Source: an archaeon
GTDB taxonomy: Archaea > B1Sed10-29 > JAJRYS01
NCBI GenBank assembly: GCA_024275665.1
Contig: JAJRYS010000012.1
Coordinates: forward strand, 1 to 35,600
Direction: 5' to 3'
Length of the DNA: 35,600 nucleotides
Shown: piece after piece, positions 6,746-30,418 of the stretch
How positions within the stretch are numbered: the first letter of the stretch is position 1
Layout: the number at the start of each line of letters is the position of its first letter
The notes under the pieces: model-generated
What the model saw: the letters and a program-made list of their open reading frames with translations, nothing else
Told to the model about the DNA's origin: nothing
Database searches by the model: none
Translations under genes and position numbers: made by a program

Positions 6746-6830
6746 TAAAAATCACCTGTAATGATATCTCATTACAAGTTTATAAAGTTTTCCAACAGCA
6801 AGAAAGAGAAAGTGAATGGGTCCACCCGGA

Positions 6831-6909
6831 TTTTCGTGGGGAGTTGCGCTTGCCCCAGCGATAGGCCGCTTCACGTGGCCTGCAGGGGTAGAGGGGGTGC
6901 AACCCCTCT
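6831..6909 (-). other. Intron 2 of tRNA-Val (79 nt, T-loop 59/60)
   Basis: Interrupts the T-loop after TTCGAA. A 4-bp central helix TTCG/CGAA with 5' bulge AAA and 3' bulge AAT predicts cleavage that restores TTCGAAT. Internal hairpins GAGGGG/CCCCTC and AGGCC/GGCCT. Confidence 0.82.
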
Positions 6910-6931
6910 TTCGAACCGGGGAGCTTCGCCA

Positions 6932-6962
6932 TACTGCCAACAGCCATTGCTGTGGCTGTTGT
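6932..6962 (-). other. Intron 1 of tRNA-Val (31 nt, canonical 37/38)
   Basis: ACAACAGCCACAGCAATGGCTGTTGGCAGTA: 9-bp hairpin CAACAGCCA/TGGCTGTTG; 3-nt bulges CGA and TAT flank a short central helix (relaxed BHB). Confidence 0.85.
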
Positions 6963-7025
6963 CGTCAAGGCGACGTCCTAACCACTAGACCATGGACCCT
7001 TAATATCTAAAAAATTCTTATCTAA

Positions 7026-7096
7026 TGGACTCGCTGGGAGTCGAACCCAGACTGCTAGCCTGCAAAGCTAGCGTGCTTCCATTACACCACGAGCCC
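7026..7096 (-). tRNA. tRNA-Ala(TGC), intronless
   Basis: GGGCTCG TG GTGT AATGGAA GCAC G CTAGC TTTGCAG GCTAG CAGT CTGGG TTCGACT CCCAG CGAGTCC A; G3:U70 alanine identity pair present. Confidence 0.93.
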
Positions 7097-8368: not shown

Positions 8369-8413
8369 TTTTTGAAAAGCCACAGATGGGACTTGAACCC
8401 ACAACCTCCTGCT

Positions 8414-8566
8414 CTCTCAAACTGCTCCTGTTACTTGTTTTCCGCTGTGAAGCGGAAACCAGGCCACTTCAGCTTCAGCTGAACGTGGTCTTCAGATGTC
8501 GATTTGCGAACTGGGTAGTTCGCAAATTTGAAGACGCGTAGTCTTCAAATCTGGCTGTGGCAGTCG
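8414..8566 (-). other. Anticodon-loop intron of tRNA-Thr (153 nt, 37/38)
   Basis: BHB: central helix CTCG/TGAG, bulges TAC and AGA, intron helix GACTGC/GCAGTT. Four strong consecutive hairpins inside. Confidence 0.85.
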
Positions 8567-8587
8567 TACGAGGCAGGCGCTCTGCCA

Positions 8588-8624
8588 TTGCTCCCACGAG
8601 CAAAGAAGTTTTGCTTCAGGCGAA
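8588..8624 (-). other. D-loop intron of tRNA-Thr (~37 nt; boundary uncertain by 1-2 nt)
   Basis: The 44-nt insert-bearing D-loop reduces to AATGGCA. The intron 3' end carries GAGC, which can pair with D-stem 5' strand GCTC, leaving AAT/AAT bulges. Internal hairpins GAAG/CTTC and TTGCTC/GAGCAA. Confidence 0.68.
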
Positions 8625-8790
8625 TTGAGCTACGGTGGCATAGATTGAGCTATTTTTACGAATAGGTTAATGTTTTTTTATTTAATTTAATATTTTAAGG
8701 CTTTTCTTGTTAGTGCTTTGCTTGGTTGAAACTTGTTAAACAATACAAATATATATCATAAAGAATACAAACGTATTAAAGGTGTTGGTA

Positions 8791-24208: not shown

Positions 24209-26320
24209 CTACTTTTCTTCAAGTACTGCTTTTTTCACGATCATGCGTGCAGTGTACTCGTTTTCCTTGACTATTTCGTAGTCAGTGATGCGTATTCGCT
24301 TGTCGAAGAAGGGAGCGTCGAGCACGAGTGTTTCGAATTCTCCTCCCTCGCCAGCCACGTTAAAACCGTATTCCTTGCTTAGCTTTACGAGCTTGTCAAC
24401 GTCTTCCAGTGTTATCTTCCTGCCAAGCCATGACGCGTACAGTCCCTGTGCTGCTATGCTTGAAAACCATACTTCGTAGTTCTTTACAACGTAACGTATT
24501 TCTTTTTCCTGGTCAGCGTGCCACAACGGAGCGAATACTTTCAACCCGAGCTCGTCGCATACTCTTTCAATCCTGTTCCTCTGATAATTAGAGTACAAAG
24601 CACCGCTCACCACTCCCTCTACTCCGTGTTTTTCAATTGCTGTTCGCAGTGCTTTTTTCAAGTCTTCGAGCTCTTCTTCCTTCACTCCTTTAGTCTCCTG
24701 CAAGACCAAGGGCAGGTTCATTGCCCTTGCTTGGAGTTCTACTAAGTGAATGTTGGGAGTGTGGAACATGAAAGACTCAGGGTTCTCGCTTTTCAAAGTA
24801 ACAAGACACGCTATCTTGTAATTCTGTTTCTTCATTACTTCCAAGGCGTAGTACCCGTCCTTGCCTCCGCTTACGAGTGCTGCGAGGCGCACGTTTCCCT
24901 CGTCGTAGTACTGTCTCAAGTATTCTGACTTGGTCATTCCTTTTGCTTTGGCGAGTTTCTCGATTGCCTTGTCAACCCCGCTTCCGTACTGCGCTGCTTT
25001 CTTCTCCCTAAAAGCCAATTCTTCAAGCACTCCCATTCTCACCGCGTTTTTCCTAAGTACGTACTTGTTCTCGTCTCCTCTTATCTTCAAATCAGTGGGA
25101 ATGCGCAGCGCGTAGTCAACGAGTTTCAAGTCGAGGAAAGGCACGCGTAGTTCTATGTTGTTGTTCATTGTCACAACGTCATCGCGGTAGTTATTCACTT
25201 CGTAGATCCTGCGGATGCTTGACAAGCACTCTTTTTCCAAGTAATGAGAACGCTTGTGCCTCTCGTAACCAGCGAACAACTCGTCAGCCCCAGAGCCTGT
25301 GAAAGCAACGCGTACTCCGTCTTTCTTCATCTCCTCAGCAGCAGCGTACAGAGTTACTGCTACTCCTACTTTTACTGGATTATTGTCTTCTATCAAAGGA
25401 GTGGCTGTCTTCACAAGTCTCTCAACTTCACCAATGTCAAGCGTTACCACTTTCAGCTTTAATCCCATTGCATTGGCAGCGTTCTCAGCTTCTTTCACGT
25501 CTATTGATCCTGGAAAGCCTGCAACGTAACAAGTGAAGTCAACTCCTTCGTCTTGCAGTGCTTTCGCAACCACGAGTGAGTCTACTCCTGCTGAGAAAAA
25601 CAAACCAACCTTTATTCCTTTGTCAGGCACGCGTATTCTCACGCTTTCCCTTATCAGTTCCCCGAGTCTTTGAATGACTTCTTCTTCACTGCCTCTTACT
25701 AACGGCTGTGTTTCGAAAAACTTTCTTTGCTTTTTCTCTTCTTCAAGAGTCTCAGCATCCAGGATTAGTATTACCCTGGGATTAAGTTCTTCAACCCTTT
25801 CAAAGCTTTTCCTAAGTGCTTTTTTCTCAGAAGCAAAACCAAAACCGTTCCCTTTCTTTGCAATCCACAAGGGCTTGACTCCAAGCAAATCCCTGCACAA
25901 GACCACTTTCCCATCAAGCCACCAGGCGAACGCGTACACTCCTCTTACTTCTTCCAGTGTTTTTTCAAGTCCGTGTTTTTCAAGCATTCTCAAAAGCAGT
26001 ACGGCGTCGTTCTCAGCTTCAAGTCCGTATCGTTGGTTTAATTCTTTCCAGTTGTACAACTCGCAGTTAGCAACCAAGACGCTGTGTTCTCCTTTCAACG
26101 GCTGCGTAGTAAACCCCACTATGGAGTGCAGGTTGTGAGCCATCACGTTTTCTGAGCTTAGTTCTTGTTTTTCAAGGAGTTCAAGAGAACGAGCAACCAC
26201 TACCCTATCGCTGTCAGTGACTCCGAACGCGTCCAATCCCCTGTTCTTCATTACTTTGAGCCCGTTGACTGCTTTTCTGAACGCGTCTTCTAATCCGAAG
26301 AAGCCGATGATTCCGCACAT
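24209..26320 (-). CDS. Fused class-II glutamine amidotransferase/asparagine synthetase + Dph6-like (diphthine--ammonia ligase) PP-loop protein
   Basis: N-terminal MCGIIGFFG GATase; VGLFFSAGVDSLVVAKAL PP-loop and ELRVPFLDLKLVDYALRIP of AsnB; from residue ~478 a second PP-loop ALVSGGKDGYYALEVM and hallmark GEGGEFETLVLDAPFF of the Dph6 family. Confidence 0.88.
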   Translation of the reverse strand: MCGIIGFFGLEDAFRKAVNGLKVMKNRGLDAFGVTDSDRVVVARSLELLEKQELSSENVMAHNLHSIVGFTTQPLKGEHSVLVANCELYNWKELNQRYGLEAENDAVLLLRMLEKHGLEKTLEEVRGVYAFAWWLDGKVVLCRDLLGVKPLWIAKKGNGFGFASEKKALRKSFERVEELNPRVILILDAETLEEEKKQRKFFETQPLVRGSEEEVIQRLGELIRESVRIRVPDKGIKVGLFFSAGVDSLVVAKALQDEGVDFTCYVAGFPGSIDVKEAENAANAMGLKLKVVTLDIGEVERLVKTATPLIEDNNPVKVGVAVTLYAAAEEMKKDGVRVAFTGSGADELFAGYERHKRSHYLEKECLSSIRRIYEVNNYRDDVVTMNNNIELRVPFLDLKLVDYALRIPTDLKIRGDENKYVLRKNAVRMGVLEELAFREKKAAQYGSGVDKAIEKLAKAKGMTKSEYLRQYYDEGNVRLAALVSGGKDGYYALEVMKKQNYKIACLVTLKSENPESFMFHTPNIHLVELQARAMNLPLVLQETKGVKEEELEDLKKALRTAIEKHGVEGVVSGALYSNYQRNRIERVCDELGLKVFAPLWHADQEKEIRYVVKNYEVWFSSIAAQGLYASWLGRKITLEDVDKLVKLSKEYGFNVAGEGGEFETLVLDAPFFDKRIRITDYEIVKENEYTARMIVKKAVLEEK

Positions 26321-29940: not shown

Positions 29941-30025
29941 GAAAACTAACTACTAAGAACAAGAATTTAAAACCTGTTGCTTTGAACCTTTCCATGTTAA
30001 AAAACAGTGAACGCGGAGGGCGAGA

Positions 30026-30119
30026 TTTTCTCGCTGTCCAGCTGGCTTTTCCGCTGTTAAGCTGAACTAGTGCATGCGGCTTGAGCCGCGTGCGCTTAAG
30101 TGCCGGCTGGTTGCAGCCG
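30026..30119 (-). other. T-loop intron of tRNA-Ser (94 nt, 59/60)
   Basis: Splits TTCGAA^T; 3' bulge AAT as in tRNA-Val. Hairpins CGGCTG/CAGCCG, GCGGC/GCCGC and GTTCAGCT/AGCTGGAC. Confidence 0.8.
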
Positions 30120-30158
30120 TTCGAACTCGCGAGCCCCGAAGGGCACTGGCTTAGCAGG

Positions 30159-30200
30159 CTCGCCTCGCTCCGCCGCTCTTGGAAAAGCAGCGTGGGCGAA
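30159..30200 (-). other. Anticodon-stem intron of tRNA-Ser (42 nt, 30/31)
   Basis: BHB: central helix CGCT/GGCG, bulges GGT and AGC, intron helix TCGC/GCGA. Confidence 0.75.
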
Positions 30201-30214
30201 CCAGCGCAATACCA

Positions 30215-30258
30215 TTGCACCTGCAAAGGTGCAAACCAAAGGGTTTGCCGTTTGCGGT
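30215..30258 (-). other. D-loop intron of tRNA-Ser (~44 nt; boundary uncertain by a few nt)
   Basis: Removal restores D-loop TAGTGGTAT. Intron 3' GTGC can pair with GCAT of the D-stem leaving AGA/AAT bulges. Hairpins GCAAACC/GGTTTGC and TGCACC/GGTGCA. Confidence 0.68.
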
Positions 30259-30266
30259 CTATGCGA

Positions 30267-30301
30267 CCTCCGCGCTTTTAGTATTGTAGTGTGCATGGTT
30301 T
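30267..30301. repeat. Direct repeat copy 2 (tRNA-Ser 5' end plus 5' flank)
   Basis: 35-bp identity cctccgcgcttttagtattgtagtgtgcatggttt with 30348-30382, period 81 bp. Confidence 0.93.
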
Positions 30302-30347
30302 TAACCATGCGCGCTTTAGCGCCAGTCCGATAATGTCGGCTGTGCGG

Positions 30348-30382
30348 CCTCCGCGCTTTTAGTATTGTAGTGTGCATGGTTT
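30348..30382. repeat. Direct repeat copy 1, carrying a tRNA-Ser-like 5' fragment (GCGGAGGCCGCACAG on minus)
   Basis: Same 35-bp string; similarity continues imperfectly into the D-arm (GCGGAGGcCGCAcAG vs GCGGAGGtCGCAtAG). Confidence 0.93.
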
Positions 30383-30418
30383 AGTGTTGTATTTTTGTTC
30401 TTCTTTTCTTAAAAACTT

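What the first reader, a model, noticed from the sequence alone, without database searches (positions are those of the whole stretch)
30012..30273. tRNA-Ser(GCT) split by three introns (D-loop, 30/31, 59/60)
Seen directly: an 82-nt mature tRNA with every stem Watson-Crick paired, UUCG-capped variable arm and G73 emerges only after removing ~44, 42 and 94 nt. The 30/31 intron has a strict BHB (TCGC/GCGA, bulge GGT, CGCT/GGCG, bulge AGC). Three introns in one tRNA gene is exceptional, and standard annotation would probably miss it. The ORF track puts several false ORFs over it.
Basis: partly seen in the sequence, partly recalled or inferred. Interest (0 to 1): 0.86.

Follow-up and report, generated by a model that had tools for sequence, protein, structure and literature searches.

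The report
Serine tRNA gene with three introns
In a tiny, Micrarchaeota-like archaeon, the only serine-GCT tRNA gene found is cut into four pieces by three removable inserts, and at least 37 of the 41 tRNA genes found in this genome are interrupted, often by related inserts, although its only detectable tRNA-splicing enzyme is of a type thought too strict to remove many of them.

Summary
Confirmed and extended. Window 30273..30012, minus strand, encodes tRNA-Ser(GCT) in four exons. Removing 44, 42 and 94 nt (sites 15/16, 30/31, 59/60) leaves an 82-nt tRNA that ARAGORN calls Ser(gct) and that aligns across all three junctions with six uninterrupted Ser(GCT) genes of relatives (best 91%, E 3e-25). 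No other Ser(GCT) was found in the 634-kb, 91%-complete assembly. The gene is not exceptional in its own genome. Of 41 tRNA genes I located, 27 carry an intron at 59/60 and only three are uninterrupted. Ser(TGA) and Ser(GGA) also have three introns each. The candidate's introns have relatives: D-loop in Ser(GGA) and in another family's Ser(TGA); 30/31 in Ser(TGA); 59/60 in five other tRNAs. Three-intron tRNAs and intron transposition are known from Thermoproteales. What differs: the genome shows a single 181-aa alpha-type endonuclease, collinear with M. jannaschii alpha4 and lacking the ARMAN and Crenarchaea loops, yet needs relaxed sites cut; and the insertion hot spot is the invariant TTCRA of the T-loop. 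Splicing itself is inferred, not shown. In passing: a permuted tRNA-Pro nested in another tRNA-Pro's intron, and partial tRNA copies ending at intron sites.

The parts
30259..30273 (-). Exon 1: nt 1-15 GCGGAGGTCGCATAG (acceptor 5' strand, D-stem 5' half, A14 G15)
   Evidence: aligns to intact Ser(GCT) genes of relatives
30215..30258 (-). Intron 1, 44 nt, D-loop 15/16; central helix GCAT (exon)/GTGC (intron), bulges AG^A and AA^T
   Evidence: junctions fixed by intact orthologues; homologous intron in Ser(GGA) of this genome and Ser(TGA) of G005
30201..30214 (-). Exon 2: TGGTATTGCGCTGG (D-loop rest, D-stem 3' half, nt 26-30)
   Evidence: (30201-30214 = query 16-29)
30159..30200 (-). Intron 2, 42 nt, position 30/31; HBh' motif CGCT/GGCG, bulges GG^T and AG^C, TCGC/GCGA
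   Evidence: homologue in Ser(TGA) (score 33 vs best of 1000 shuffles 27) and the same motif in Ser(GGA)
30120..30158 (-). Exon 3: nt 31-59, with anticodon GCT at 30155-30153, UUCG-capped variable arm, T-stem 5' strand and TTCGAA
30026..30119 (-). Intron 3, 94 nt, T-loop 59/60, family F1; h = T-stem, H = TTCG against AGAA (3 of 4 pairs), bulges AA^C and AA^T
   Evidence: scores 40-65 against Asn, Cys, Arg, His and C26:2600 introns; no shuffle above 31
30012..30025 (-). Exon 4: TCTCGCCCTCCGCG (T60, T-stem 3' strand, acceptor 3' strand, G73 discriminator)
30274..30302 (-). Promoter-like 5' flank of the tRNA gene, directly repeated at about 30355-30384
   Evidence: sequence; the promoter role is inference
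30340..30354 (-). Partial 5' copy of the tRNA (GCGGAGGCCGCACAG, 2 mismatches to nt 1-15), ending exactly at the D-loop intron site, followed by hairpins; probable relic
   Evidence: offset -81; same arrangement upstream of Ser(GGA) and of Ser(GCT) in relative G008

Best explanation
A functional, apparently single-copy tRNA-Ser(GCT) gene of a Micrarchaeota-like DPANN archaeon whose transcript carries three archaeal bulge-helix-bulge-type introns. Inferred mechanism: the tRNA splicing endonuclease cuts each intron at paired 3-nt bulges and the RNA ligase RtcB joins the exons to give the 82-nt tRNA. At 59/60 the T-stem is the outer helix and the invariant T54-R57 (TTCR) pairs with a YGAA-like tract near the intron 3' end. 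At 30/31 and 15/16 only one outer helix forms, so relaxed motifs are used. The introns are members of families: the D-loop intron is old in serine tRNAs of this order; the 30/31 intron is shared with a paralogue; the 59/60 intron belongs to a family spread by transposition over unrelated tRNAs. Shown: gene, exon boundaries, homology of the introns, shared pairing pattern. Inferred: transcription, cleavage, ligation and the route of transposition.
For: Spliced sequence is tRNA-Ser(gct) by ARAGORN and aligns across all junctions with six intact Ser(GCT) genes. Sole Ser(GCT) in the assembly. Paralogues Ser(TGA) at C29:3023 and Ser(GGA) at C28:15004 have three introns each, sharing 15/16 and 30/31. 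D-loop intron: score 68 against Ser(GGA) and 30 against G005 Ser(TGA), best shuffles 31 and 26. T-loop intron: scores 40-65 against five other tRNAs, best shuffle at most 31. 27 of 41 catalogued tRNA genes have a 59/60 intron; H is fully paired in 19, and a C partner occurs only with G57. A complete alpha-type endonuclease with Tyr/His/Lys is present.
Against: No RNA data. The T-loop motif of this gene has one mismatch in the central helix (TTCG/AGAA), and the 15/16 and 30/31 motifs each lack one outer helix, which the literature says alpha4 enzymes do not cut (PMC4090602, PMC4033280). The catalogue scan required at least 3 of 4 central pairs, so H of at least 3 is partly by construction. RtcB was not searched for. 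The assembly is fragmented (37 contigs, 91% complete).
Confidence: 0.9

Rival explanations
1. A decayed tRNA pseudogene with inserted sequence; Ser AGC/AGT codons are read by another, unassembled tRNA-Ser(GCT).
For: About 9% of the genome may be missing. The T-loop central helix has one mismatch. Partial tRNA copies do litter the genome.
Against: Acceptor, T, anticodon and variable stems are intact, and all three intron boundaries fall exactly where intact orthologues continue. Paralogues Ser(TGA), Ser(GGA) and Ser(CGA) are interrupted in the same way, so an uninterrupted gene is not the norm here. No second Ser(GCT) found.
Confidence: 0.05
2. The introns are real, but cutting relies on an enzyme other than the alpha subunit alone: an undetected beta subunit in the missing 9%, or endonuclease or tRNA supplied by a host cell.
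For: Literature ties relaxed and non-canonical introns to (alpha-beta)2 or epsilon2 enzymes with CSL/ASL loops (PMC4033280, PMC12397907). DPANN archaea are often host-dependent (general knowledge). Relative G001 has two endonuclease genes, one with the catalytic His replaced.
Against: PF01974 and PF02778 both find one ORF here (the only other PF01974 match, 12.9 bits, lies in an acetyltransferase-like ORF). Most order and class relatives, including intron-rich G009, also show a single alpha gene.
Confidence: 0.3
3. Alternative 5' exon use: the transcript starts at the upstream partial copy (30354) and is spliced from there to the 15/16 acceptor site, or the partial copy is a trans-spliced 5' half.
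For: The copy ends exactly at nt 15; its GCAC is fully complementary to the GTGC of intron 1; it carries its own copy of the 5' flank; the same layout is conserved upstream of Ser(GGA) and in G008.
Against: The copy has C8 instead of U8; the Ser(GGA) copy has lost A14 and an acceptor pair; no matching 3' half was seen. These look like decaying duplicates.
Confidence: 0.05

Closest known systems
Multiple-intron tRNA genes of Thermoproteales (Pyrobaculum calidifontis tRNA-Glu(UUC), P. islandicum tRNA-Pro(UGG), three introns each; PMC4390854, PMC4090602)
   Same: Up to three BHB-type introns in one tRNA, several at non-canonical sites, 30/31 and 59/60 among the sites known; similar introns shared by unrelated tRNAs (Fujishima 2010, cited in PMC4090602 and PMC4033280).
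   Different: DPANN, Micrarchaeota-like host with a 634-kb assembly; only an alpha-type endonuclease found; site combination 15/16 + 30/31 + 59/60; dominance of the 59/60 site (27 of 41 genes).
Atabeyarchaeia/Freyarchaeia (Asgard) tRNA introns (PMC11291895)
   Same: 92-95% of tRNA genes interrupted, often at non-canonical sites and with several introns.
   Different: Unrelated lineage; the passages read give no splicing-endonuclease type and no T-loop family of shared introns.
ARMAN-1/2 (Micrarchaeum) tRNAs and epsilon2 endonuclease (PMC4033280, PMC12397907)
   Same: Same broad group of ultrasmall archaea; multiple-intron tRNAs.
   Different: Here the enzyme is a 181-aa alpha type collinear with M. 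jannaschii alpha4, without the ARMAN-specific loop.
Permuted tRNAs joined at 59/60 in Thermofilum pendens and Cyanidioschyzon merolae (PMC3218864)
   Same: Break at 59/60 in the T-loop with a BHB-like junction; one such gene also occurs in this genome.
   Different: The candidate itself is collinear, not permuted.

Membership tests
tRNA-Ser(GCT) | Cloverleaf with GCT anticodon, long variable arm, G73 | tested here: met
   (ARAGORN on spliced sequence; alignment to six intact Ser(GCT))
tRNA-Ser(GCT) | Only gene for its codons in the genome | tested here: inconclusive
   none other; assembly 90.8% complete
Archaeal BHB-type tRNA introns | Paired 3-nt bulges flanking a 4-bp central helix at each junction | tested here: met
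   and sequence: 30/31 CGCT/GGCG (one G-U), 15/16 GCAT/GTGC (one G-U), 59/60 TTCG/AGAA (3 of 4 pairs)
Archaeal BHB-type tRNA introns, strict form (hBHBh') | Both outer helices and a fully paired central helix | tested here: not met
   30/31 lacks the exon-exon helix, 15/16 lacks the intronic outer helix, 59/60 has a central mismatch (sequence)
Archaeal BHB-type tRNA introns | Excision and ligation in vivo | not testable with these tools
   no RNA data
Transposed tRNA intron families (as in Thermoproteales) | Similar intron sequences in non-homologous tRNAs | tested here: met
   F1 in Ser, Asn, Cys, Arg, His and C26:2600; F3 in several tRNAs and in G009
alpha4-type splicing endonuclease | Single ~180-aa subunit with N domain, C domain and catalytic Tyr/His/Lys, no CSL/ASL | tested here: met
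alpha4-type splicing endonuclease | Homotetramer | not testable with these tools
   inferred from homology to 1a79 only
alpha4-type splicing endonuclease | Host tRNA introns restricted to canonical strict sites | tested here: not met

The most novel reading that the evidence does not exclude
An alpha-only (probably alpha4) endonuclease without the known specificity-broadening loops supports a genome in which about 90% of tRNA genes are interrupted, including relaxed sites. This would break the accepted link between enzyme architecture and intron diversity. A self-spreading intron family docks on the invariant TTCRA of the T-loop, and the partial tRNA copies and the nested permuted tRNA are by-products of the same process.
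Probability: 0.35. Interest if true: 0.82.

Novelty: new variant of a known kind. Interest (0 to 1): 0.62.

Why it matters
The standard view (PMC4033280, PMC4090602, PMC12397907) is that alpha4 and alpha2 enzymes cut only canonical BHB sites and that non-canonical, multiple introns followed the evolution of (alpha-beta)2 or epsilon2 enzymes with extra loops. This genome, and its class relative G009, show the introns without the loops. That makes the rule directly testable with one small recombinant protein and three short RNAs. It also supplies a simple reason for one intron family to enter almost any tRNA: every tRNA has the T-loop TTCRA with which the intron pairs. Practically, tRNA counts used to judge completeness of such genomes are badly low: Rfam finds 12 tRNAs above cut-off where at least 41 exist.

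Tried and rejected
Reading the gene on the + strand (acceptor palindrome misleads; the anticodon loop CTGCTAA lies on the minus strand). A 42-nt D-loop intron with an 84-nt product, replaced by 44/82 after comparison with orthologues. First anticodon-loop pattern had a one-base spacing error and gave only chance-like hits; not used as evidence. Long-gap T-loop pattern in relatives was at control level in most genomes, so its counts are not evidence; only hits confirmed by T-stem and acceptor pairing were kept. The weak second PF01974 match (C8, 12.9 bits) lies in an acetyltransferase-like ORF and was rejected as a beta subunit. The upstream 5' copy as a functional split-tRNA half was considered and judged unlikely (C8; lost A14 and acceptor pair in the paralogue's copy; no 3' half). 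Similarity of the G011 Leu T-loop intron to F3 was not significant (score 14).

Full report
WHAT IS THERE. The finding holds. The gene lies on the minus strand, 30273 to 30012. Neither ARAGORN nor Rfam sees it in place. Its 5' acceptor strand GCGGAGG (30273-30267) pairs with CCTCCGC (30019-30013), and G73 is at 30012. Removing 44 nt at 15/16, 42 nt at 30/31 and 94 nt at 59/60 gives GCGGAGGTCGCATAG|TGGTATTGCGCTGG|CCTGCTAAGCCAGTGCCCTTCGGGGCTCGCGAGTTCGAA|TCTCGCCCTCCGCG, 82 nt, which ARAGORN calls tRNA-Ser(gct).

PROOF OF THE EXON BOUNDARIES. A nucleotide search with the spliced sequence in 41 archaeal genomes found uninterrupted tRNA-Ser(GCT) genes. The best is in G003, same order but another family (91% over 77 nt, E 3.3e-25). 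ARAGORN calls that locus, and those in G016, G012, G006, G004 and G017, Ser(gct) without intron. The alignment runs through all three junctions, apart from the usual D-loop length variation. In the window's own genome the query matches this gene only in separate exon pieces (30259-30273, 30201-30214, 30120-30159, 30012-30027). This excludes chance and fixes the D-loop intron at 44 nt; my first cut of 42 nt was wrong.

UNIQUENESS. The assembly has 634 kb in 37 contigs, 90.8% complete. Neither Rfam tRNA searches down to E = 10 nor the BLAST search shows another Ser(GCT). The other serine genes are Ser(CGA) (C26:610, two introns), Ser(TGA) (C29:3023, three introns at 15/16, 30/31, 59/60) and Ser(GGA) (C28:15004, three introns at 15/16, 30/31, 37/38).

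GENOME CONTEXT. The closest named relatives of the neighbouring FEN1-like protein are mostly Micrarchaeota metagenome assemblies, at 46-49% identity. Rfam finds only 12 tRNAs above its cut-off. A scan for T-stem plus acceptor pairing with an optional T-loop insert, in targeted stretches, together with reading of the remaining hits, located 41 tRNA genes. Of these, 27 have a 59/60 intron, three (Ala GGC, Ala TGC, Leu CAG) are uninterrupted, and one is permuted (the count is my tally from those outputs and a lower bound). The genome rivals the richest known cases: Thermoproteales at about 70% of tRNAs with introns and Asgard Atabeyarchaeia at 92-95%, as stated in PMC11291895.

THE INTRONS BELONG TO FAMILIES. 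Local alignment against 1000 dinucleotide shuffles: the D-loop intron matches that of Ser(GGA) (68, best shuffle 31) and that of Ser(TGA) in G005, another family of the order (30, best shuffle 26), so it is old in serine tRNAs. The 30/31 intron matches Ser(TGA) (33, best shuffle 27); the match to Ser(GGA) is weaker (22; 12 of 1000 shuffles as good), although the motif is the same. The 59/60 intron matches introns at the same site in Asn, Cys, Arg, His and C26:2600 tRNAs (40-65; no shuffle above 31). A second family (F3) is shared by several tRNAs here and by tRNAs of G009, another family of the class (37, best shuffle 26).

HOW IT PROBABLY WORKS. At 59/60 the T-stem is the outer helix; T54-R57 pairs with the 4 nt that precede the last two intron bases; the two bulges are A58 N59^i1 and the last two intron bases^T60. 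In 27 introns the central helix is complete in 19 and has 3 of 4 pairs in 8, including this gene. The background for complete pairing within the same introns is 4.5%, or about 24% given at least three pairs, which the scan required. A C partner occurs only with G57, as pairing demands. Because TTCRA is near-universal in tRNAs, one intron end fits almost any tRNA. At 30/31 the motif is HBh' (no exon-exon helix); at 15/16 it is hBH-like. Cutting by the tRNA endonuclease and sealing by RtcB are inferred from general knowledge of archaeal tRNA splicing.

THE ENZYME PUZZLE. Pfam PF01974 and PF02778 both hit one 181-aa ORF. It aligns almost without gaps to M. jannaschii EndA 1a79 and has the Tyr, His and Lys of the active site. 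It has none of the 11-18 residue loops (ASL, CSL) that PMC12397907 links to broad specificity. A one-residue longer basic stretch (KEKRK) is shared with relatives, including G003, whose Ser(GCT), Ser(CGA) and Ser(TGA) genes are uninterrupted, so it is not obviously the answer. Almost all relatives in the order and class have a single such gene. These include G009, where Rfam sees only 6 tRNAs at E of at most 0.1 and where 59/60 introns are also common. Reviews state that alpha4 and alpha2 enzymes cut only canonical BHB motifs (PMC4033280, PMC4090602). Either that rule is too narrow, or a further factor is missing from the assembly or comes from a host.

WHAT IS KNOWN AND WHAT IS NOT. Three introns in one archaeal tRNA are known (P. 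calidifontis Glu, P. islandicum Pro; PMC4390854); 30/31 and 59/60 are listed sites (PMC4090602); intron transposition is described for Thermoproteales (same sources and PMC4033280). I found no description of this lineage, of a genome dominated by 59/60 introns, or of heavy non-canonical intron load with an alpha-only enzyme. That search covered open-access full text only.

THE UPSTREAM COPY. A partial copy of the promoter-like flank and nt 1-15 lies 81 nt upstream (30354-30340) and ends exactly at the intron site. Similar 5' copies lie 81-95 nt upstream of six other tRNA genes here and upstream of Ser(GCT) in G008. Four genes have 3' copies (T60-G73) downstream, preceded by a shared element. 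Breakpoints coincide with the intron sites 15/16 and 59/60 in the clearest cases, which suggests relics of intron movement or tandem duplication; such duplicates are also possible raw material for permutation. A permuted tRNA-Pro is in fact present, nested in the 37/38 intron of another tRNA-Pro.

VERDICT. A new variant of a known kind; its main value is the genome-wide pattern and the test it offers of the enzyme-intron rule.

Noticed in passing
G000:C1:1724-2066 (locus L001 1724-2066): tRNA-Pro(CGG) with a 182-nt 37/38 intron (plus an 86-nt 59/60 intron); inside the 37/38 intron lies a circularly permuted tRNA-Pro(AGG): 3' half 1799-1812 upstream of 5' half 1851-1911, flanks pair over 15 bp, join at 59/60; ARAGORN folds both joined products. 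A34 in the anticodon is odd.
   Followed up: partly
window 30340-30384 and upstream of Ser(GGA) C28, Lys C14:1123, Gly C14:2752, Leu C12 (twice) and C36:2672, Pro-like C36:2368; G008 Ser(GCT): Partial copies of the tRNA 5' end (about nt 1-15) with hairpins, 81-95 nt upstream of the full gene, ending at or near the D-loop intron site.
   Followed up: partly
downstream of Ala(GGC) C1:1311, Gly C14, C36:4966, Leu C12 (loci L001, L112, L110, L029): 3' partial copies (T60-G73) 87-164 nt downstream, preceded by a shared ~60-nt element GGGGGTCAGGAGGACCCTGGAACTGGGGGGAACCGTTAGGTGCCC..GCGGTTCGGAA, which also appears inverted in the Leu 5' copies.
   Followed up: partly
window 8378-8639 (-), 6817-6999 (-), 7026-7096 (-): Other tRNA genes in the window: putative Thr(CGT) with large D-loop and anticodon-loop introns, putative Val(GAC) with an anticodon-loop and an F3 59/60 intron, and an uninterrupted Ala(TGC).
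   Followed up: partly
G000:C8 about 25945-26085 (locus L008): Initiator-like tRNA-Met whose 5' acceptor strand appears split by an intron (AGCG^...^GGG), plus an anticodon-loop intron.
   Followed up: no
G009 (same class): Only 6 Rfam tRNA hits (E up to 0.1) in a 92%-complete genome; many tRNAs with 59/60 introns of a family AAGAAGGGTTGCACCCTTTCTAAACCTGCAGGG related to F3.
   Followed up: partly
G001:C33 and C41 (loci L192, L193): Two endonuclease genes; one has the catalytic His replaced by Asn (GNAIWL), suggesting an independent alpha-beta enzyme. Its Ser(GCT) has a D-loop intron at 15/16.
   Followed up: no
loci L023 (window 8378-8639), L030 (C9), L111 (C26:2600): The core of the F1 T-loop intron (CCACGTTCAGCTGAAGCTGAAGTGGCCTGGTTTCCGC) also occurs in introns at other positions, so the family appears to have moved between sites.
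   Followed up: no
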